Notes under the pieces: model-generated
The model's input: only the letters and a program-made list of their open reading frames with translations
What the model was told of the DNA's origin: nothing
Databases searched by the model: none
Source: Vibrio fluvialis
Lineage (GTDB): Bacteria; Pseudomonadota; Gammaproteobacteria; Enterobacterales; Vibrionaceae
Assembly (NCBI RefSeq): GCF_900460245.1
Contig: NZ_UHIP01000001.1
Span: 62,001 to 126,000, forward strand
Direction: 5' to 3'
DNA: 64,000 nucleotides
Part shown: in pieces, positions 4,472-60,065 of the stretch
Numbering within the stretch: position 1 is the first letter of the stretch
How the letters are laid out: the number at the start of each line of letters is the position of its first letter
Translations under genes and position numbers: made by a program

Positions 4472-6217
4472 GTGGACGCGATTACCATCAACAGCTTTTT
4501 TCTGGTTGGCGCATTACTCATTGCGCTCAGCGTACTCCTGAGCCCGGTATCCTCAAAACTGGGGATTCCTATTCTTTTGGTTTTTCTTGCCGTCGGTATG
4601 TTGGCTGGGGAAGACGGGGTCGGTGGCATTTTATTTGATAACTATCCGGTAGCGTATCTGGTGAGTAACCTGGCGCTGGCGATCATCCTGCTCGATGGCG
4701 GGATGCGCACCCGGGTAGCGAGTTTCCGGGTCGCATTCTGGCCGTCGGTGTCTTTGGCGACTGTCGGGGTAGCGATTACCACGATGCTGACCGGATTGAT
4801 GGCAGCTTGGTTGTTTGATCTCGATCTGCTGCAGGGCATTCTGGTGGGTGCGATTGTCGGTTCAACCGATGCGGCGGCGGTGTTCTCGCTGCTCAAAGGT
4901 CGCAGTCTCAACGAGCGTGTCGGAGCCACGCTGGAAATTGAATCCGGTACCAACGACCCGATGGCCGTGTTTCTGACCGTCACCATGATTGCAGTGCTGG
5001 GCAGCCAGAGCAGCGATCTGAGCGCAGGTTTCCTGGCGCTGAGCTTTGTGAAACAGTTTGGTCTCGGCGCGTTACTCGGCCTGTGTGGCGGCTGGTTATT
5101 GTGGAAACTGATCAATCGCAGTCAGTTACCCGAAGGGCTTTATTCCATTCTGACCGTGAGCGGCGGCCTGATTATTTTTGCGTTGTCGAACGCGCTCGGC
5201 GGCAGCGGCATTCTGTCTATTTATCTGGTCGGTCTGCTGATCGGTAACCGCCCAACCCGCAGCCGTCATTCGATTCTGAACGTGCTGGATGGCATGACCT
5301 GGTTGTCGCAAATCGGCATGTTCTTGGTATTGGGTCTGCTGGTCACACCGTCAAATCTGGTGGCGATCATGGTGCCGGGTCTGGCGCTGGCGTTTGGCAT
5401 GATTCTGTTTGCCCGTCCGGTGTCGGTATGGATTGGCTTGTTGCCGTTCAAAAGTTTTACCGCCCGTGAGAAATGGTTCATTTCCTGGGTCGGATTGCGC
5501 GGCGCAGTACCGATCATTCTGGCGGTGTTCCCAATGATGGCCGGATTGCCGGATGCACAGCTTTACTTCAATCTGGCGTTCTTCGTGGTCATGGTATCGC
5601 TGATTGTGCAAGGCGGAACGCTGACCAAGGCGATGTCGCTGGCCAAGGTAGAGCTGCCATCAAAGCCGGAGCCGATTTCTCGCACGGGTGTCGAGATTTT
5701 TCCGACCAGCGAGTGGGAATTGTTTATCTACAATCTGAAGCAGGACAAATGGTGCATCGGTGAGCCGCTGCGTAACCTGTTCATGCCGGATGGTACGCGG
5801 ATTGCGGCGGTATTCCGTCAGCAGCAACTGCTTCACCCGTCGGGCAGTACTAAGCTTGAAGAAGGGGATACGCTGTGTGTGCTGGCGCAGGAAAAAGATC
5901 TTGAAGCGCTCAGCCAACTGTTCAGTGAAGCGCCGGAAAAAGCCTCACTGGCGCGCTTCTTTGGTGACTTCTTCCTCGATATTGAAGCCAAATTGGTGGA
6001 TATCGCGATGGCTTATGGTCTCGATTTGGGCGAGCTGAGCGACGACAAAACGCTGAAAGATTTAGTGACCGAACACCTTGGCACCACCCCGGTACTGGGT
6101 GACCACTTCGAATGGCATGGCCTGCATTGGGTGGTGGCCGACGTGGTGGACTGGCAGGTGACCAAGATTGGTTTACGTCTGCCAGCGGAAGATGATGTGG
6201 TGGAGGCGGGCGAGTAG
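4472..6217 (+). CDS. nhaP2: K+/H+ antiporter NhaP2 (CPA1 family)
   Basis: 581 residues. The N-terminal about 390 residues form a cation:proton exchanger domain of some 12-13 membrane segments with the ion-site motif GTNDPMAVF near residue 159. The last about 180 residues are a cytoplasmic regulatory part (a TrkA-C-like region near 400-485 and an HlyC/CorC-like tail). NhaP2 of V. cholerae exchanges K+ or Na+ for H+ and protects at acid pH in high K+. The start is a GTG at 4472 directly after the ribosome site GGGAGGGGGAG. It converges with crbR, with only two nt between the stops. Confidence 0.94.
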
Positions 6218-6219
6218 CG

Positions 6220-6849
6220 TTATTCGCTCATCTCTTTCAGCAGGATCACGGCCTGAGTGCGGTTTTTCACCCCAAGTTTACGGAAGATCGCCGTCATATG
6301 TGCTTTGATGGTGGCTTCCGAAACATTCAGTTCATAAGCAATCTGCTTATTCAGTAAGCCGTCCGACAACATGCCCAGTACTTTGTATTGCTGTGGGGTC
6401 AGGGCGGCGATTTTCTCCGCCAGATCGTTACAGGCTCCCGCATCGGCGATCAGCCCTTCCGGAAAATACGGTTCGCCGTTCAGCACCTGATTAATTGCGC
6501 TGATCAAACTGCGCATGTCGCTCGATTTAGGAATAAAACCGAACGCGCCATGGCTTTTGACTTGTGACACCACTGACGGCTCTTCACTGGCAGACACCAC
6601 TACAATCGGCAAATCCGGGTATTCGGCACGCAGGTGAATCAGCCCCGACATGCCGTTGGCGCCGGGCATTTTCAAATCCAGCAGCAGCAGATCCGGCTCA
6701 GAGCCTTTATTGAGCAGCGCCAGCAGCGCATCGAGAGAATCAGCTTCAAGAAGGTTCGCCCCACTGACTGCCATGTGCACAGATTGGAACAGGGCATTGC
6801 GAAATAGCGGATGATCATCGGCGATGATGATGGTGTAGGTCGAGTCCAT
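6220..6849 (-). CDS. crbR: LuxR-type response regulator CrbR
   Basis: Receiver domain (about residues 4-120; acidic DDHP near 11-14, phosphorylatable Asp in LLLLDLKMPG, Lys in IPKSS) followed by a LuxR helix-turn-helix (LTPQQYKVLGMLSDGLLNKQ onward). In V. cholerae the CrbS/CrbR pair switches on acetyl-CoA synthetase and acetate use; this gene has that position beside actP. The frame continues to a TTG at 6912, but I chose the ATG at 6849, which gives MDSTYTIIIADDHP with the receiver motif at the usual distance; neither start has a strong ribosome site. The cognate kinase is not in the window. Confidence 0.85.
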   Translation of the reverse strand: MDSTYTIIIADDHPLFRNALFQSVHMAVSGANLLEADSLDALLALLNKGSEPDLLLLDLKMPGANGMSGLIHLRAEYPDLPIVVVSASEEPSVVSQVKSHGAFGFIPKSSDMRSLISAINQVLNGEPYFPEGLIADAGACNDLAEKIAALTPQQYKVLGMLSDGLLNKQIAYELNVSEATIKAHMTAIFRKLGVKNRTQAVILLKEMSE

Positions 6850-7024
6850 GACGTTAAACACTTTTAACAAATTAGTTAAAGAAATTATTGTCCGCTTTGA
6901 AAATATGGACAATGTTCACACACTAAAAGTCTGAACTGTATCCACTTTTTATCTGCATGAAGATGAATAGCGCTCACCCTGTTTGACAGCGGGGTCTCGA
7001 ACCGGGTGAGCGTAAAAGGAGGAA

Positions 7025-8815
7025 TCAGAGCTGGTGGTTGCTCAGATGCTGCAAAAATTGCTCGGCAGGCTGAAAACCGGTGATGCGCGCGTTTGAAACG
7101 CGTTCGCCCTGCGCATTCCAGAACTCGATAGTCGGCAAACCGAGCACTTGCATTTGTTTCAGCAATTCAATGTCTTGCGGTTGATTTTGTGTTACGTCGG
7201 CTTGAAGTAAGACAAAGTTTTTCAATTTCTGCTCCACATCCGGATGGTGGAAGGTGTACTTATCAAACTCCTTACACGCCACACACCAGTCGGCGTAGAA
7301 ATCGAGCATCACTGGTTTGCCCGCCGCTTTGGCGCTGGCTAATTCACGGTTGAGGTCGTCAACATTGGCAATTCGAGTGAACGCAATCGCAGGTTGTGCT
7401 TGCGTGGCCGCTTGTTCTGGCATCATCCAGTGATTGAGTAACGGTTGTGCAGAGGCCAGCAGGCCGAGAATGGCAATAATGCCCAGCAGGCTCTGTTTCC
7501 AGCCGGCAAACGGCAGACTGTTTTTGACATGGTACAGCCAGCCAAATGCGGCTAGTCCAAGCAGTGACCACAGTGCGGTGGACCAGAACTCTGGCAGCAG
7601 ACGCTCCAGAAGGAAAATCGGTGCTGCGAGCAGAATAAAGCCGAACAGCGTTTTCACGCGCTCCATCCACATACCCGCGCGTGGCAGCAGACGGTTACCA
7701 AATACTGCAACCAGAATCAGCGGAATGCCCATGCCGAGTGCCAGTGCGTAGAGCGCTACGCCACCTGTCAGCAAATCTCCACTTTGTGCAACATACAACA
7801 GCGCGCCGGACAGCGGCGCAGTGGTGCAGGGCGAACACACCAAACCGGAAATCGCACCCATAGCGAATACGCCCGCCAGGCTACCCCCTTGCTGCTGATT
7901 ACTCAGGTTGCTGAGCCAGGTTTGCATGCGGCTTGGCAGTTGTAAGGTGTAAAGACCAAACATCGACGCGGCGAGCAGCACAAACAGCGCGCTGAGGCCG
8001 ATCAGCACGTAAGGGTGTTGTAAGGCGGCCTGAAATTGTAGCCCGGCCGAAGCAACGACTAACCCGAGCAGGGTGTAGGTCAGCGCCATGCCTTGCACAT
8101 ACACAAAACTCAGCAGCAGCGCGCGGCGGTGCGACAACTGACCGCCGCCGAGCACGATGCTGGTCAGAATCGGGTACATGGGCAGTACGCACGGAGTAAA
8201 CGCCAGCCCGATCCCCAGCAGTAAGAACAGCAGCGGTGTCCACCAAGCATCGGCCAGTTGTGAAGCCAGTGAATCCTGTTGAGACGCTGGTACGCTGTCT
8301 GTGGTGACGGCTGCATTGTTCGCCGAGGCCGATGGTGCCGGTGTGATTTCGGCGGGCTGATCAAAACTAAAACTGTCGAGCGTAATCACGCGGGTTTCCG
8401 GCGGATAACAGAAGCCAGCTTTGGCACAGCCCTGATACTGCACAATCAGTCGAGCACCGTCCTGATAGTCGCGCAGTGGCAGCGTGACAGACAGTGGCGT
8501 GGTGTAGATGGTGACATCCCCAAAGAACTCATCATGATACGGCTGGCCCTGCTGCAACTGATAGTCGCCGAGTGTGACTTTGTCTGCACTGATGCTGATG
8601 CGATCCTGATACAGGTAGTAGCCGTCTTTGACCTGCCAATCGAGATAGACCTGATTGCCTTGCTGGAAATAGCTGAACGGAAAGGCTTCATCCACGGTCA
8701 CAAACTGGTTGTTACTGCCGAGCGAGAGAGGGTTATTGTTACCAAACGCCGCCAGTGCCGGTTGGCTCAGAGCGGAACACACCAGCAGTAAGAAAGAGAA
8801 AAATATACGCATCAT
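7025..8815 (-). CDS. dsbD: Thiol:disulfide interchange protein DsbD
   Basis: Moves reducing power from cytoplasmic thioredoxin across the inner membrane to periplasmic DsbC, DsbG and CcmG. Three parts are visible: signal peptide and periplasmic immunoglobulin-like domain with a Cys pair (CAKAGFC, near 110); a central eight-segment membrane domain with conserved Cys in FTPCVLP and [10 protein letters not shown]; and a C-terminal thioredoxin-like domain with CVAC in [14 protein letters not shown] near 510. The open frame begins at a TTG at 8818; the ATG at 8815 (or 8812) is the likely start, giving a normal signal peptide [22 protein letters not shown]. Length about 596, normal for DsbD. Confidence 0.96.
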
Positions 8816-38852: not shown

Positions 38853-39097
38853 GGGATAACCTCAATTTAGGCCGTGTCGCTATCCGAATCAACGTCGGAC
38901 ACCACACGTAATGTTAATGATACTGTTCGATACTCAGCCTTGTTGACCAAGCATCTTCAAGGCGCGATATATTAATGAATCCACCGCTTCGGATCAACCG
39001 CTTTCGGCGTTATTTTCGCCACTATTGTGGGTCGAATTTCCCATCCGCATCCAGTAGACTGTGATTTCTCACCATTTTTGACTGCTGACGGACTGTT

Positions 39098-52068: not shown

Positions 52069-53733
<1,665 letters not shown>

Positions 53734-54329
53734 CGCGACGAGAGTCGCGGAGGTCGCTAACCTCGCGGGCTACGGCCGAAGTAATTACTAACTTATATTA
53801 GTGGTTATTTCCCACACTCGCAAACTTAGTAGTCGAAATCCGTTGGTCGGATTGCACAATCCGATCAACGGCATTCCTTTACGGGAATGTTCGCCTGATC
53901 GCACCTGTGCGATTAGCTTAAAATTGGCGCATTCGCTGCCGTTCAAAAAGTCATATCTAGGAAAGCCATATTGTGCTACTGGCAAAAAGCGGCGGTTCGC
54001 CTGCCGATCAAACGCCAATCCGAAAATATTGCTGTTAAGCATGATCAACGCGATTCATTACTGTAGCGTCCTTCGGGCGTAAGTCATTGTAATTATTGTC
54101 TCGGTATTCAAGTTTACATTGATGCAAGTGAGACCTGTTATACGACTAACAGTAGCCTAGGGGTAGTGCATAACTGGTAACGGTTTTGTGCGAAGCTCCC
54201 TGACAATGTACCTCTGCGAAAGCAACTCGAAACCCGTGAGGGCAATGAGTAATCCATAAACAATATGTGGGTTGAGGGCTAGGCTAAGCAGCATGGTTAA
54301 CGTAAGTGAACTGTTGATAAACACCGTCA

Positions 54330-54334
54330 GCCGC
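54330..54334 (+). other. Possible EBS2 of intron copy 1
   Basis: GCCGC can pair with GCGGC nine to thirteen nt before the groEL junction, where IBS2 is expected. Five pairs only, and I did not confirm a supporting hairpin. Confidence 0.35.
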
Positions 54335-54393
54335 AATGAGCGAAAGATTGTTGATACGCTCTGACCAAAAGGTTCGAGGTCGGTTGTTCCTTT

Positions 54394-54399
54394 TACATC
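54394..54399 (+). other. EBS1 of intron copy 1
   Basis: TACATC in the loop of GTTCC-TTTTACATCT-GGGAAC pairs at all six bases with IBS1 GATGTA (53727-53732). The copy 2 equivalent is at 57527-57532 with the same sequence. Confidence 0.85.
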
Positions 54400-54728
54400 T
54401 GGGAACACGTCGTCATGAGACCTCCGGTGGACAGACAGAACCTAAACTGCTTGTGTAATTACAATGGAACTCGGTAAGCCCAATTATTTGCCTAAATACA
54501 ATTCTGATTTAGGCAGGTCGACCGTAAGGAAAACTGATGAATAAGTGGGTAAAGGAGGTTGGAAAAAGCGAATGCAAAGCTGTAATGGCTTTGATAAGGA
54601 TTCAAACTTTGTCCTAACCAGAAATGGTGCAGACTTCCAACTGGTCTTTAATCGTGTGAAAACATGTAAAGTCATCTAATAAATTAGCCCAACGGGGATT
54701 AGCTATCCCCGTAGGGGTAATAGCTTTT

Positions 54729-54747
54729 CTCCATGAGGGCTATGGAG
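54729..54747 (+). promoter_or_regulatory. Hairpin that covers the ribosome site of the intron protein, copy 1
   Basis: CTCCAT (54729-54734) pairs with ATGGAG (54742-54747); the stem can extend through TT/GA by a G.T pair. It hides the GGAGG that serves the start at 54757. In copy 2 the base matching 54734 is G rather than T, breaking one pair. In the lactococcal intron Ll.LtrB a similar structure lets the protein limit its own synthesis. Confidence 0.55.
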
Positions 54748-54756
54748 GAAAGCAAG

Positions 54757-56415
54757 ATGAGTACAGCAACAACGCATAAGTTACCTGCGTCCTCCCACTT
54801 AATGGAGCACTGGCACAGTATCGACTGGCCGCTAATGCACCAGACAGTGAGAAGACTACAGGTCAGGATCGCGAAGGCAACGAAAAAGTCTGACTGGCGA
54901 CAGGTTAAAAGACTGCAACGCATGTTAACCCGATCGTTTGCTGCCAAGGTGATCGCCATTCGGCGAGTCACCGAAAACAGGGGGAAAAACACCGCTGGGG
55001 TTGATGGGGAAACCTGGAATACACCTGCAAAGAAATGGGAGGCAATAGAACAGCTAAAGCGAACGGGCTATAAGCCCAAACCGCTCAGGCGAGTCTATAT
55101 TCCCAAAGCCAATGGTAAGAAGAGACCGCTGGGGATACCAACCATGCGTGATAGGGCAATGCAAGCACTGTACTTGTTAGCTCTTGAGCCCATATCGGAA
55201 ACCACGGCGGATCGGAACAGCTATGGCTTTCGTCCGAACCGCTCTTGTGCTGATGCCATCGAACAATGCTTCGTGAATCTCAGCCGCAAGGCGAGTGCCC
55301 GTTGGGTACTGGAGGGCGATATCAAAGGGTGTTTTGACTTTATCAGCCATGACTGGCTTATCGGCAATATCCCTATGGATAAGACGATACTCAAGAAATG
55401 GCTGAAAGCCGGATTCATGGAATCTGGAAAATTTAACTCGACGGAGGCGGGCACGCCACAAGGTGGGATTATCTCTCCGGTGCTTGCCAACATGGTATTA
55501 GATGGTTTGGAAACGGTGCTTGAATCTCACTTCGGGAAGAAGAACACCAAAGCCAGCTATAAAACCAAGGTCAACTATGTACGGTATGCGGATGATTTTA
55601 TCATCACTGGTATCTCGAAAGAGTTATTGGAAGAGGATGTTCTACCAATAGTGAAAGCCTTTATGGCTGAACGAGGGCTGGAACTTTCTGATGAGAAAAC
55701 ACTAATTACCCATGTGGATGAGGGGTTTGATTTTCTGGGGCAGAATTTACGTAAGTACGACGGCAAGATGCTAATTAAGCCATCGAACAAAAACGTAAAG
55801 ACATTTCTGCGTAACATTCGGGATTATCTCAATCGCCATAAAACGGTGCCAGCATCAGCGGTGATCGCCAAGCTGAATCCGATGATACGGGGGTGGTGCA
55901 ATTACCACCGTTGGGTCTGCGCGAGCGAGACATTCAAGTATGTCGACTATCGGATCTGGAAAATGTTATGGCAGTGGTGTCGTCGGATACACAGCAACCG
56001 TCGCAAACGCTGGATTAAAGAGAAATACTTTAAAACAGTGGGGGACAGAAATTGGGTATTCAGTGCACCAAAACCAAAAGGGGAAGATGGACACTACCGT
56101 TTGCTCAGCGCAGCGAGAGTGAAAATCGACAAGCATGTAAAGATTAGAGCAATGGCTAATTGCTACCTACCGGAAGACGAACAATATTTTGAGCGTCTGA
56201 AGATGCAAAGGCTCAAGAAGTCTTTGTCGGGTAACATGAAGTTATGGAAGATTGTTGAGAGACAAGATTACCAATGTGCGGTTTGCCACCAGCAATTTAA
56301 TTCGGAAGATGAGTGGGATATTCACCATATTGTCAGACGAGTTGACGGTGGTACGGACAATAGCTCTAATTTGGTGATGTTGCATGTCAATTGTCATAGG
56401 CAGGTACACTCATAG
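54757..56415 (+). CDS. Group II intron reverse transcriptase/maturase with HNH domain, copy 1
   Basis: 552 residues from the ATG at 54757 (GGAGG eight nt upstream; in-frame ATGs at 54742 and 54733 are possible). Reverse transcriptase blocks in order: AGVDGETW, RRVYIPKANGKKRPLGIPT, SYGFRPNRSCADAI, LEGDIKGCFDFISHDWL, GTPQGGIISPVLAN, the catalytic YADD in VRYADDFIITG, and DFLGQNLRKY. The maturase domain follows (GWCNYHRWVCASETFKYVDY). At the C-terminus an HNH endonuclease has CAVC, WDIHHIV and LHVNCHRQVH. All catalytic residues are intact, so splicing help, target cutting and reverse transcription should all be possible. Confidence 0.95.
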   Translation: MSTATTHKLPASSHLMEHWHSIDWPLMHQTVRRLQVRIAKATKKSDWRQVKRLQRMLTRSFAAKVIAIRRVTENRGKNTAGVDGETWNTPAKKWEAIEQLKRTGYKPKPLRRVYIPKANGKKRPLGIPTMRDRAMQALYLLALEPISETTADRNSYGFRPNRSCADAIEQCFVNLSRKASARWVLEGDIKGCFDFISHDWLIGNIPMDKTILKKWLKAGFMESGKFNSTEAGTPQGGIISPVLANMVLDGLETVLESHFGKKNTKASYKTKVNYVRYADDFIITGISKELLEEDVLPIVKAFMAERGLELSDEKTLITHVDEGFDFLGQNLRKYDGKMLIKPSNKNVKTFLRNIRDYLNRHKTVPASAVIAKLNPMIRGWCNYHRWVCASETFKYVDYRIWKMLWQWCRRIHSNRRKRWIKEKYFKTVGDRNWVFSAPKPKGEDGHYRLLSAARVKIDKHVKIRAMANCYLPEDEQYFERLKMQRLKKSLSGNMKLWKIVERQDYQCAVCHQQFNSEDEWDIHHIVRRVDGGTDNSSNLVMLHVNCHRQVHS

Positions 56416-56760
56416 AAGGAAAGTAAAGGAGGGCGCCTCTGCCCCCTCATTACCGACTTACAGGAGTACCATTAGTGAAAGTTTCAAAAAGAGGATAACG
56501 AGAACTGGGTCTATTTCGATCTTAAACTCTATCTTCATACAAAGCTCCTTAGGTTGGGGTTAAAGTAAGGGTTAGATTTACGGAAAGCCGTAAAAGAACC
56601 CGCGATACGATGTTAAACGAGGTATCGTTTAGCAAACGCTCATGGCTAAGAATCAGATATGGCCTGAGACCGCCACTTTCTCCAACAAAAGGACTAAATG
56701 ATCGAAACTGCATTAAGGCTATGCAATAAATTGCTTTTGGTCAACTTTGTCGTTACTGGC
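56416..56760 (+). ncRNA. Domain IV insert of intron copy 1, apparently non-coding
   Basis: About 340 nt between the protein stop and domain V that has no counterpart in copy 2. It contains two perfect hairpins, TTTACGG-AAAG-CCGTAAA (56577-56594) and TAAACGA-GGTA-TCGTTTA (56614-56631). The longest plus-strand frame from an ATG is 39 codons (56610-56729) with no ribosome site. I do not recognise it. It may be a remnant, a structured RNA, or simply part of domain IV. Confidence 0.45.
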
Positions 56761-56790
56761 CGATACGTGTATATCGGTTTATAAAGGCTT

Positions 56791-56824
56791 GAGCCGTATG
56801 CGGGGAAACTCGCACGTACGGTTC
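56791..56824 (+). ncRNA. Group II intron domain V, copy 1
   Basis: A 34-nt hairpin starting GAGCCGTATG and ending CGTACGGTTC with a GAAA tetraloop region, the catalytic core of group II ribozymes. Domain VI follows at about 56828-56865. Confidence 0.93.
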
Positions 56825-57889
56825 TTAGGGGGCGGTGGCGCAGTAATGCGCCGCTGCTACCCGACGCGCGACGAGAGTCGCGGAGGTCGCTAACCTCGCG
56901 GGCTACGGCCGAAGTGATTACTAACTTATATTAGTGATTATTTCCCACACTCGCAAACTTAGTAGTCGAAATCCGTTGGTCGGATTGCACAATCCGATCA
57001 ACGGCATTCCTTTACGGGAATGTTCGCCTGATCGCACCCGTGCGATTAGCTTAAAATTGGCGCATTCGCTGCCGTTCAAAAAGTCATATCTAGGAAAGCC
57101 ATATTGTGCTACTGGCAAAAAGCGGCGGTTCGCCTGCCGATCAAACGCCAATCCGAAAATATTGCTGTTAAGCATGATCAACGCGATTCATTACTGTAGC
57201 GTCCTTCGGGCGTAAGTCATTGTAACTATTGTCTCGGTATTCAAGTTTACACGGATGCAAGTGAGACCTGTTATACGACTAACAGTAGCCTAGGGGTAGT
57301 GCATAACTGGTAACGGTTTTGTGCGAAGCTCCCTGACAATGTACCTCTGCGAAAGCAACTCGAAACCCGTGAGGGCAATGAGCAATCCATAAACAATATG
57401 TGGGTTGAGGGCTAGGCTAAGCAGCATGGTTAACGTAAGTGAACTGTTGATAAACACCGTCAGCCGCAATGAGCGAAAGATTGTTGATACGCTCTGACCA
57501 AAAGGTTCGAGGTCGGTTGTTCCTTTTACATCTGGGAACACGTCGTCATGAGACCTCCGGTGGATAGACAGAACCTAAACTGCTTGTGTAATTACAATGA
57601 AACTCGGTAAGCCCAACTATTTGCCTAAATACAATTTTGATTTAGGCAGGTCGACCGTAAGGAAGACTGATGAATAAGTGGGTAAAGGAGGTTGGAAAAA
57701 GCGAATGCAAAGCTGTAATGGCTTTGATAAGGATTCAAACTTTGTCCTAACCAGAAATGGTGCAGACTTCCAACTGGTCTTTAATCGTGTGAAAACATGT
57801 AAAGTCATCTAATAAATTAGCCCAACGGGGATTAGCTATCCCCGTAGGGGTAATAGCTTTTCTCCAGGAGGGCTATGGAGGAAAGCAAG

Positions 57890-59584
57890 ATGAGTACAGC
57901 AACAACGCATAAGTTACCTGCGTCCTCCCACTTAATGGAGCACTGGCACAGTATCGACTGGCCGCTAATGCACCAGACAGTGAGAAGACTACAGGTCAGG
58001 ATCGCGAAGGCAACGAAAAAGTCTGACTGGCGACAGGTTAAAAGACTGCAACGCATGTTAACCCGATCGTTTGCTGCCAAGGTGATCGCCATTCGGCGAG
58101 TCACCGAAAACAGGGGGAAAAACACCGCTGGGGTTGATGGGGAAACCTGGAATACACCTGCAAAGAAATGGGAGGCAATAGAACAGCTAAAGCGAACGGG
58201 CTATAAGCCCAAACCGCTCAGGCGAGTCTATATTCCCAAAGCCAATGGTAAGAAGAGACCGCTGGGGATACCAACCATGCGTGATAGGGCAATGCAAGCA
58301 CTGTACTTGTTAGCTCTTGAGCCCATATCGGAAACCACGGCGGATCGGAACAGCTATGGCTTTCGTCCGAATCGCTCTTGTGCTGATGCCATCGAACAAT
58401 GCTTCGTGAATCTCAGCCGCAAGGCGAGTGCCCGTTGGGTACTGGAGGGCGATATCAAAGGGTGTTTTGACTTTATCAGCCATGACTGGCTTATCGGTAA
58501 TATCCCTATGGATAAGACGATACTCAAGAAATGGCTGAAAGCCGGATTCATGGAATCTGGAAAATTTAACTCGACGGAGGCGGGCACGCCGCAAGGTGGG
58601 ATTATCTCTCCGGTGCTTGCCAACATGGTATTAGATGGTTTGGAAACGGTGCTTGAATCTCACTTCGGGAAGAAGAACACCAAAGCCAGCTATAAAACCA
58701 AGGTCAACTATGTACGGTATGCGGATGATTTTATCATCACTGGTCTCTCGAAAGAGTTATTGGAAGAGGATGTTCTACCAATAGTGAAAGCCTTTATGGC
58801 TGAACGAGGGCTGGAACTTTCTGATGAGAAAACACTAATTACCCATGTGGATGAGGGGTTTGATTTTCTGGGGCAGAATTTACGTAAGTACGACGGCAAG
58901 ATGCTAATTAAGCCATCGAACAAAAACGTAAAGACATTTCTGCGTAACATTCGGGATTATCTCAATCGCCATAAAACGGTGCCAGCATCAGCGGTGATCG
59001 CCAAGCTGAATCCGATGATACGGGGGTGGTGCAATTACCACCGTTGGGTCTGCGCGAGCGAGACATTCAAGTATGTCGACTATCGGATCTGGAAAATGTT
59101 ATGGCAGTGGTGTCGTCGGATACACAGCAACCGTCGCAAACGCTGGATTAAAGAGAAATACTTTAAAACAGTGGGGGACAGAAACTGGGTATTCAGTGCA
59201 CCAAAACCAAAAGGGGAAGATGGACACTACCGTTTGCTCAGCGCAGCGAGAGTGAAAATCGACAAGCATGTAAAGATTAGAGCAATGGCTAATTGCTACC
59301 TACCGGAAGACGAACAATATTTTGAGCGTCTGAAGATGCAAAGGCTTAAGAAGTCTTTGTCGGGTAACATGAAGTTATGGAAGATTGTTGAGAGACAAGA
59401 TTACAAATGTGCGGTTTGCCACCAGCAATTTAACTCGGAAGATGAATGGGACATTCACCATATTGTCAGACGAGTTGACGGTGGTACGGACGCTAGCTCT
59501 AATTTGATGATGTTACATGTCAATTGTCATAGACAGGTACATAACGACGGTTATCTCACAACGTTTCATAGTAGTCGGGACTAA
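57890..59584 (+). CDS. Group II intron reverse transcriptase/maturase with HNH domain, copy 2
   Basis: 564 residues from the ATG at 57890 (569 from the in-frame ATG at 57875, which has AGGAGGG closer). Same domains as copy 1: reverse transcriptase with YADD in VRYADDFIITG, maturase, and HNH with CAVC, WDIHHIV and LHVNCHRQVH. It differs from copy 1 at a few residues (I to L after FIITG; K for Q before CAVC; DASSNLMM for DNSSNLVM). It has a longer C-terminus, NDGYLTTFHSSRD, where copy 1 ends in S. Active residues are intact. A small second gene follows 37 nt later inside the same intron. Confidence 0.95.
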   Translation: MSTATTHKLPASSHLMEHWHSIDWPLMHQTVRRLQVRIAKATKKSDWRQVKRLQRMLTRSFAAKVIAIRRVTENRGKNTAGVDGETWNTPAKKWEAIEQLKRTGYKPKPLRRVYIPKANGKKRPLGIPTMRDRAMQALYLLALEPISETTADRNSYGFRPNRSCADAIEQCFVNLSRKASARWVLEGDIKGCFDFISHDWLIGNIPMDKTILKKWLKAGFMESGKFNSTEAGTPQGGIISPVLANMVLDGLETVLESHFGKKNTKASYKTKVNYVRYADDFIITGLSKELLEEDVLPIVKAFMAERGLELSDEKTLITHVDEGFDFLGQNLRKYDGKMLIKPSNKNVKTFLRNIRDYLNRHKTVPASAVIAKLNPMIRGWCNYHRWVCASETFKYVDYRIWKMLWQWCRRIHSNRRKRWIKEKYFKTVGDRNWVFSAPKPKGEDGHYRLLSAARVKIDKHVKIRAMANCYLPEDEQYFERLKMQRLKKSLSGNMKLWKIVERQDYKCAVCHQQFNSEDEWDIHHIVRRVDGGTDASSNLMMLHVNCHRQVHNDGYLTTFHSSRD

Positions 59585-59621
59585 TATCAATAATTCATTG
59601 TGACGACCTGAGGAATTAGCT

Positions 59622-59924
59622 ATGAGCACTATCAAAAGACATATGGAGAATGAGCAACATAAGTTTGATGTAGCCACTGATATAGCAATACAAGCCGGAG
59701 TTCTTCAACTTTGCGAGTACTGCGACAGCTCGGTATTTCAGGGTTCCGGGGACATAGAAGATGCCTATGATTTAGGTGCTGATATGTATGCCTCGGGTGA
59801 TCTGGGTAATGTATTCGACTCGGAACAGGACATGATCGATGCCATTGAAAATACCGTTCAATCAGGTGACCATTCAGGTGAAGTATGCTTCCATTGTGAT
59901 GAGATGATTAACGGAGATGACTGA
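59622..59924 (+). CDS. Unrecognised 100-residue double-CxxC protein carried in intron domain IV
   Basis: ATG at 59622 with AGGA seven nt upstream. Acidic, soluble protein; two Cys pairs, CEYC near residue 33 and CFHC near 91, suggest one zinc site built from both ends. Between them are Asp/Gly-rich helical segments (GDIEDAYDLGADMYASGDLG, DMIDAIENTVQ). No membrane segment, signal peptide or DNA-binding motif. It lies after the intron protein gene and before domain V, so it moves with the intron and is read from the groESL transcript or an internal start. I do not know its function; copy 1 lacks it. Confidence 0.8.
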   Translation: MSTIKRHMENEQHKFDVATDIAIQAGVLQLCEYCDSSVFQGSGDIEDAYDLGADMYASGDLGNVFDSEQDMIDAIENTVQSGDHSGEVCFHCDEMINGDD

Positions 59925-59970
59925 TAATGTGTTGCTGGCCGGTATTTTAAATATGGGCTTATAAAGGCTT

Positions 59971-60004
59971 GAGCCGTATGCGGGGAAACTCGCACGTACG
60001 GTTC
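59971..60004 (+). ncRNA. Group II intron domain V, copy 2
   Basis: Identical in sequence to domain V of copy 1. Domain VI follows to 60045, with one C-to-T change relative to copy 1 that turns a G-C into a G.T pair. Confidence 0.93.
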
Positions 60005-60065
60005 TTAGGGGGCGGTGGCGCAGTAATGCGCTGCTGCTACCCGACATTCGCGCCCAGCCTGAAAC

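What the first reader, a model, noticed from the sequence alone, without database searches (positions are those of the whole stretch)
53733..60045. Two full group II introns in exact head-to-tail tandem
Copy 1 ends at 56865 and copy 2 begins at 56866 with no base between; the ends were set by aligning the copies with each other and with the two exon flanks. Group II introns normally home to an empty site. Here the 5' exon (IBS1/IBS2) stays intact after the first insertion, so a second intron can enter the same junction as long as it tolerates a G instead of A as first base of the 3' exon. That would make copy 2 (3' side) the older one and copy 1 the newer. Homologous crossover would not by itself create the perfect first junction.
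Basis: partly seen in the sequence, partly recalled or inferred. Interest (0 to 1): 0.9.

Follow-up and report, generated by a model that had tools for sequence, protein, structure and literature searches.

The report
Two introns stacked in groEL stop
A bacterial chaperone gene carries two self-splicing mobile introns joined end to end inside its stop codon, and the upstream copy differs from its twin at the one base thought to read its right-hand neighbour, which suggests that such introns can invade a site that is already occupied.

Summary
Copy 1 (53733-56865) and copy 2 (56866-60045) are complete group II introns (assigned to subgroup IIB) with nothing between them, inside the groEL stop codon (TA|A). 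They are not plain duplicates: 28 SNPs in 2676 nt, non-homologous domain IV tails, 3 SNPs in the last 95 nt. Every splicing state leaves groEL a stop codon (TAG or TAA).

A Lysobacterales contig looks like a further case.

Main new result: one SNP (copy position 700) falls on the coordination-loop base that behaves as EBS3, which pairs with the first base of the 3' exon. It is C in copy 1 (neighbour G) and U in copy 2 (neighbour A). Of 42 introns, 3 of 3 with a G neighbour have C and 38 of 39 with an A neighbour have U. G552 keeps U-A through its downstream copy's changed first base.

Best reading: re-homing into an occupied site, upstream copy newer. Splicing and mobility were not tested.

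The parts
52096..53733 (+). groEL coding sequence; the stop codon is TA (53731-53732, exon) plus G (53733, first base of copy 1)
   Evidence: ORF of 545 aa; 40 of 43 distinct related introns have groEL in their locus
53720..53724 (+). IBS2 (GCGGC), candidate
   Evidence: complementary to the EBS2 candidate GCCGC in both copies; direct reading
53727..53732 (+). IBS1 (GATGTA), last 6 bases of the 5' exon
   Evidence: 6 of 6 pairs with EBS1 TACATC
53733..56865 (+). group II intron copy 1 (upstream, presumed newer), 3133 nt, GCGCG...CCGAC
54134..54278 (+). copy 1 domain I core (RF02012), after 401 nt of intron
   Evidence: 106.9 bits
54330..54334 (+). copy 1 EBS2 candidate (GCCGC)
54394..54399 (+). 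copy 1 EBS1 (TACATC)
   Evidence: the introns tabulated read TACATC here, L011 reads TACATT
54432..54432 (+). copy 1 EBS3 candidate = C (copy position 700), matches G at 56866
54733..56415 (+). copy 1 intron-encoded protein (RT, maturase, HNH); the start homologous to copy 2's is at 54742
56789..56865 (+). copy 1 domains V-VI (RF00029)
   Evidence: 66.9 bits
56866..60045 (+). group II intron copy 2 (downstream, presumed older), 3180 nt
57267..57411 (+). copy 2 domain I core (RF02012)
   Evidence: 105.3 bits
57463..57467 (+). copy 2 EBS2 candidate (GCCGC)
57527..57532 (+). copy 2 EBS1 (TACATC)
57565..57565 (+). copy 2 EBS3 candidate = T/U (copy position 700), matches A at 60046
57875..59584 (+). 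copy 2 intron-encoded protein (RT, maturase, HNH)
59622..59924 (+). small ORF in the domain IV tail of copy 2, Lambda_ea8_5 domain; no plus-strand ORF of 40 aa or more in copy 1's tail
   Evidence: PF20735, E 4.3e-12
59969..60045 (+). copy 2 domains V-VI (RF00029)
   Evidence: 66.6 bits
60046..60046 (+). first base of the 3' exon (A, IBS3), third base of the spliced stop codon TAA
   Evidence: direct reading

Best explanation
Two mobile group IIB introns of one lineage sit in series in the groEL stop codon because the site survives its own occupation. An intron inserted at TA|A leaves the whole 5' recognition sequence (IBS2-IBS1) next to its own first base, so the DNA now reads TA|G. A second intron ribonucleoprotein can reverse-splice there if its EBS3 pairs with G. 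Copy 1 carries EBS3 = C and so matches the occupied site; copy 2 carries EBS3 = U and matches the original A. In RNA, copy 1 is expected to splice first, joining TA to the first base of copy 2 and so rebuilding copy 2's 5' splice site; copy 2 then splices. GroEL gets a stop codon at every stage (TAG, TAG, TAA), so stacking should cost the protein nothing. Shown by sequence: structure, exact ends, stop codon states, the EBS3-neighbour association, recurrence. Inferred: the role of the loop base as EBS3, insertion by retrohoming, upstream copy newer, order of splicing. Not tested: activity of either intron.
For: Zero-base junction at exact intron ends, with no shared base on either side of the breakpoint. 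EBS1 pairs 6/6 with the groEL end and 1/6 with the end of copy 1. The copies are distinct introns: 28 SNPs and different domain IV tails, which resemble tails of different other introns. EBS3 candidate versus first 3' base in 42 distinct introns: 3 of 3 G-neighbour introns have C, 38 of 39 A-neighbour introns have T; Fisher p = 3.5e-4, not corrected for relatedness (bases; counts; p). Copy 1's C is derived against L004, L033, L036. Other read tandems: L054 with EBS3 C facing the next intron's G, and G552 with EBS3 U facing a downstream copy that starts with A. On the tree non-tandem rows lie between the tandem rows. Both intron-encoded proteins are open; 10 of 15 differing codons are silent.
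Against: L058, at groEL, has C facing A, so a mismatch can persist. L059, if a true tandem, has U facing G (wobble). The two copies' proteins are nearest relatives of each other in the window and in G552, which a duplication would also give. RmInt1 excision in vivo did not need the EBS3-IBS3 pair (PMC3123198), so selection through splicing is not assured. L051, one of the three G-neighbour introns, is ectopic, with no groEL upstream, and is the sister of L058. In a stacked insertion the 3' exon is replaced by intron sequence; proteins of related introns can read a 3'-exon base, and second-strand cleavage needs 3'-exon recognition in introns studied (PMC2882425 passage), so homing there may be poor. 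The tree program's own tally (tandem rows against the two L051/L058 rows only) needs just one change and so shows nothing about independent origins. No splicing or mobility data.
Confidence: 0.76

Rival explanations
1. The second intron entered with EBS3 = U through a G-U wobble; EBS3 changed to C only afterwards, under selection for accurate removal of copy 1. (A variant of the best explanation, not exclusive of it.)
For: L059 has EBS3 = U and may be a young tandem of identical copies. Nothing in the sequence dates the change against the insertion.
Against: In RmInt1 the EBS3-IBS3 pair was dispensable for excision in vivo but is stated to matter for target recognition (PMC3123198, passages). 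Since TAG ends the gene whether or not copy 1 is removed, selection on splicing should be weak (inference).
Confidence: 0.4
2. Recombination of a circular DNA copy of the intron (from RNA circles or lariats, reverse transcribed) with a resident intron made the tandem; a single crossover gives a perfect junction.
For: A group II intron can be released as a true circle (PMC4649490, abstract), and a circle-derived junction would also be exact.
Against: The copies differ in the domain IV tail and in SNPs, so the circle would have to come from another intron. L054's two copies match only over 248 nt of domain I, and G552's first 400 aligned positions differ at 72 bases. It does not explain the EBS3-neighbour match.
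Confidence: 0.09
3. Ordinary duplication or unequal crossing-over of one intron, later diverged.
For: The copies' proteins are nearest relatives of each other and both copies share the unusual second base C.
Against: A breakpoint at exactly both intron ends without microhomology has no reason in such events. Tails are not homologous, and SNP density varies 15-fold along the copies (0.34% to 5.1%), as for two alleles with gene conversion.
Confidence: 0.07
4. Assembly artefact.
For: Repeats of 2.7 kb can be mis-joined.
Against: Two-contig genome, distinct tails and SNPs, like arrangements in G552 and L054.
Confidence: 0.02

Closest known systems
Group II introns in the groEL stop codon (Azotobacter lineage; Ferat et al. 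2003 recalled; Michel et al. 2007 seen only as cited in a passage of PMC4465626)
   Same: Same gene and place, large extension at the 5' end before the domain I core, RT-encoding
   Different: Those are described, in the passage seen, as single introns; here two in series with differing EBS3
Nested twintrons of Thermosynechococcus, Trichodesmium and Methanosarcina (PMC2882425 passages, PMC4649490 abstract, PMC4424553 passages)
   Same: A group II intron uses another intron as its target; sequential splicing (Trichodesmium); in Methanosarcina called a perpetual homing site
   Different: There one intron interrupts another; here the second enters at the exon-intron boundary and neither is interrupted
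C. tetani C.te.I1 with repeated domains V/VI (PMC4424553 passage)
   Same: Several 3' ends in a row at one locus
   Different: Only the domain V/VI part repeats; here two whole introns
Natural circularly permuted group II introns (PMC8637638, title and passages)
   Same: D5-D6 of one unit stands just before D1 of another
   Different: Each copy here also has all its domains in normal order

Membership tests
Mobile group II intron, subgroup IIB | Domain I core and domains V-VI | tested here: met
   RF02012 and RF00029 in both copies above gathering score
Mobile group II intron, subgroup IIB | Intron-encoded RT, maturase and HNH endonuclease, reading frame open | tested here: met
   Four Pfam domains in each copy
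Mobile group II intron, subgroup IIB | 5' GUGYG and 3' AY ends | tested here: inconclusive
   3' AC met; 5' end is GCGCG, 4 of 5 positions. L011/L044 and L015 also begin GCGCG
Mobile group II intron, subgroup IIB | EBS1-IBS1 pairing | tested here: met
   6 of 6
Mobile group II intron, subgroup IIB | 3' exon read by EBS3 in the coordination loop (IIB/IIC) and not by delta-delta' (IIA) | tested here: inconclusive
   A loop base matches the first 3' base in 41 of 42 introns, as described for IIB in PMC3123198; only 3 informative G cases, no formal fold or subgroup assignment was run
Mobile group II intron, subgroup IIB | Splicing and retrohoming activity | not testable with these tools
   needs experiments
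groEL stop-codon lineage | Insertion within the groEL stop codon | tested here: met
   TA|intron|A; groEL ORF upstream
groEL stop-codon lineage | Large insertion at the 5' extremity | tested here: met
   401 nt before the RF02012 match; feature as described in a PMC4465626 passage
Twintron (intron within intron) | One intron interrupts the body of another | tested here: not met
   Junction lies exactly between the two introns
Circularly permuted group II intron | D5-D6 upstream of D1-D4 in one unit | tested here: not met
   Each copy has D1 core, IEP and D5-D6 in normal order

The most novel reading that the evidence does not exclude
Some group II introns evolve into specialists for the occupied form of their own site. 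A one-base change in EBS3 (U to C) retargets them to the first base of a resident intron, so they stack upstream of it. When the resident's first base changes to A (G552, perhaps L018) the empty-site sequence is restored and unchanged introns can re-enter. The groEL stop codon would then be a self-renewing landing site that puts intron alleles in series, where recombination between copies can shuffle domain IV cargo and leave chimeras (L058, with EBS3 C facing A, could be such a relic).
Probability: 0.4. Interest if true: 0.82.

Novelty: new variant of a known kind. Interest (0 to 1): 0.68.

Why it matters
Group II introns are usually said to home to empty sites. If an occupied site can be entered again, and a single guide base decides it, occupancy need not protect a site and introns can accumulate in series at a harmless spot. 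The EBS3 co-variation gives a natural, one-base test of how the 3' exon is chosen in vivo, and stacked copies offer a way for introns to recombine and exchange cargo genes. The prediction can be tested with one plasmid assay.

Tried and rejected
Rejected: misassembly (G552 and L054 show a like arrangement); plain duplication of one intron (different tails, uneven SNPs). L072 (Parashewanella), first taken as a tandem because GTGCG follows its end, is not one: what follows looks by eye like a terminator hairpin and then genes, not an intron. L052's long 5' part carries transposase-like ORFs that I recognise from memory as IS66-like (no search was run), not a second intron. I first read L051's G neighbour as a groEL TAG stop; it is an ectopic insertion without groEL upstream. 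L055 also has no groEL in its locus and an unlike 5' flank, but its contig starts 127 nt before the intron.

Led nowhere: junction pattern in viral contigs, 0 matches; RT scan of viral contigs, 1 distant hit. Junction pattern in genomes: own genome only, 1 of 226 Vibrio, 1 of 394 of the order, 1 of 369 of the class, 1 of 340 of the class with an A-or-G first base; these sets overlap and include the own genome each time. The G-only pattern missed G552, which was in the order set, so these counts are lower bounds. In the 23 genomes of G552's genus, 2 had a match to its intron protein and only G552 had two.

Counts: 43 distinct introns after merging identical copies; 42 enter the EBS3 table (39 A, 3 G), and 40 of 43 have groEL in their locus, making 38 sites, 3 of them tandem. 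Left out: L059 (neighbour unknown); L100 (not at groEL); L017, L018, L020, L054B, L072 (domain I or 3' end missing); L009 (same intron as L045); L067 and other distant loci. The script row for L052 was a false match; one search gives T.

Papers: passages only of PMC8637638, PMC8919778, PMC8742464, PMC4465626, PMC3123198, PMC2882425, PMC4424553, PMC6907783; abstract and outline of PMC4649490; otherwise search listings. Exact head-to-tail pairs of whole group II introns were not seen in the listings and passages from searches of an open-licence library, of which I opened only the papers named. Not read: Dai and Zimmerly on Methanosarcina, Ferat 2003, Michel 2007, Zumkeller 2020 (plant mitochondria, an intron said in its title to invade itself).
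Full report
What is there. groEL (52096-53733) ends ...GGCGGCATGATGTA, followed at once by a group II intron that begins GCGCG and ends CCGAC at 56865. A second intron begins at 56866, ends at 60045, and is followed by ATTCGCG. The intron therefore splits the stop codon: TA|A when spliced, TA|G (= TAG) when not. With two introns, the unspliced message reads TAG, removal of copy 1 gives TAG again, and removal of both gives TAA (direct reading). The copies share their first 2676 nt (28 mismatches, no gaps) and last 95 nt (3 mismatches); the domain IV stretch between is not homologous by BLAST. Both have Rfam domain I and V-VI matches and a full intron-encoded protein with RT, maturase and HNH domains. 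Of 15 differing codons in that protein, 10 are silent. A search of the window's genome (2 contigs, 4.86 Mb) with copy 2 finds this locus only.

Are they a duplication? SNP density is uneven: 1.3% in the first 1002 nt, 0.34% in 1003-2481, 5.1% in 2482-2676 (10 of 28 SNPs in the last 195 nt, p = 1.6e-5, intervals chosen after seeing the data). The domain IV tails differ, and each resembles the tail of a different intron among the loci fetched (copy 1: L057, 62%; copy 2: L052 and L034, 61-62%). This fits two alleles that were brought together and partly homogenised better than one element copied in place. The junction shares no base on either side of the breakpoint.

Where could a second intron enter? 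EBS1 (TACATC) pairs 6 of 6 with the groEL end GATGTA and 1 of 6 with the end of copy 1. So the groEL/intron boundary remains a target after the first insertion, while the intron/intron boundary does not look like one.

The EBS3 result. [quoted passage not shown] In the collected introns the corresponding stretch, 3' of the EBS1 hairpin, reads CGGTGGA[X]AG or close to it; I take X as EBS3 from its position and from the co-variation that follows. Copy 1 has X = C (54432), copy 2 has X = T (57565). Among 42 distinct introns with both features readable, 3 of 3 with a G neighbour have C (window copy 1, L054 upstream copy, L051) and 38 of 39 with an A neighbour have T; the exception is L058 (recount). 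Fisher p = 3.5e-4, not corrected for relatedness: L051 and L058 are sister introns. The three outgroup introns readable at this base (L004, L033, L036) have T, so copy 1's C is derived. The chance that 28 random SNPs hit this one base with this letter is about 0.35%. L051 turned out to be ectopic, not at groEL, so in this set both groEL-sited introns with a G neighbour are upstream members of tandems.

Recurrence. L054, a Thalassotalea MAG: intron A 4916-8314, then GTGCGACGAG at 8315 and a remnant with a domain I core (RF02012, 8905-9051). A and B match at 94% over 248 nt; no other match between them was found, their 5' ends included. There B begins ATGCGAC: the first base is A, EBS3 is U in both copies, and the pair U-A is kept. 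B's protein is open, so apart from the first base B is not visibly decayed. L059, a Lysobacterales contig of 3460 nt, has identical 99-nt ends that are the intron's own last 99 nt, followed by GTGCGAC; this is what an assembler would give for identical introns in series, but the locus is unknown and it is inference. On a tree of 41 intron proteins the window pair, L054, the G552 pair and L059 have non-tandem rows between them; the program's label tally compares tandem rows with only two others, needs one change, and is no test of independence. Of 38 groEL sites with a readable 3' end, 3 are read tandems.

Occupancy. In Vibrio, at least 17 of 227 genomes including this one carry a related intron, or a piece of one, at groEL (16 fetched loci with groEL in them plus the window; only 30 loci were fetched); one is a tandem. 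In E. coli the three closest records share 70% identity; the one opened (strain A37, L095) has a single intron at groEL.

Order of arrival. The model says the upstream copy is newer. L054's downstream copy is a truncated remnant and G552's downstream copy has a changed first base, as expected for older residents. In the window both copies look intact; only the derived EBS3 of copy 1 points the same way.

How it most likely works. A resident intron leaves IBS2-IBS1 untouched and adds a G. An intron whose EBS3 pairs with G reverse-splices there. Splicing should go copy 1 first, then copy 2. Since every state ends groEL, stacking is tolerated. Open: whether EBS3 changed before or after insertion. 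The RmInt1 work says the pair is dispensable for excision in vivo but important for target recognition, which favours before; L059 (U facing G, if real) favours after. A weak point is that stacking replaces the 3' exon, which some introns' proteins also read (PMC2882425 passage).

Compared with what is known. The site and lineage are known (Azotobacter groEL intron, passage of PMC4465626). Nested twintrons and repeated homing of introns into introns are known (PMC2882425, PMC4649490, PMC4424553). I saw no report of whole introns abutting head to tail with a matching EBS3 change (searches; open-licence library, few papers opened). Hence: new variant of a known kind. Confidence in the best explanation was lowered from 0.78 to 0.76 on checking, because the tree run holds no test of independent origin and the 3'-exon point weighs against it.

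Noticed in passing
window 59622-59924; domain IV tails of L004, L033, L034, L052, L099, L013, L014, L038, L039, L043, L044, L053, L055: The stretch between the intron protein's stop and domain V carries small ORFs that differ from intron to intron. Of ten tested, Pfam gave Lambda_ea8_5 (L033, L052), DUF2188 (L014), DUF1508 (L013), one below-threshold match (L042) and nothing for five; window copy 2 is Lambda_ea8_5 too. Others listed look alike by eye. It looks like an exchangeable cargo slot.
   Followed up: partly
L018 around 1041: A Vibrio groEL intron fragment whose first base is A (ATGATGTA|ATGCGAC), which recreates the empty-site sequence TA|A; no 3' end lies in the stretch fetched.
   Followed up: partly
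L017 and L020, after groEL: Only the 5' part of an intron matches after groEL (about 550 and 240 nt), which looks like decay remnants or diverged copies.
   Followed up: partly
L051 4880-4915: An ectopic copy (Marinomonas flavescens) whose 5' flank ends ATGGGCGGCATGATGTA, like the groEL end, although no groEL is in the locus; its EBS3 is C and its neighbour G.
   Followed up: partly
L095 (E. coli A37, NZ_CP029327.1): A single intron of this kind follows groL in E. coli; three E. coli records share the top hit (only this one was opened).
   Followed up: partly
L052 2532-6000: Transposase-like ORFs (IS66-like from memory, not searched) lie inside the 5' part of the groEL intron of Halomonas socia.
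   Followed up: no
window 38859-38908, minus strand: L31 ribosomal protein leader (RF03157).
   Followed up: no
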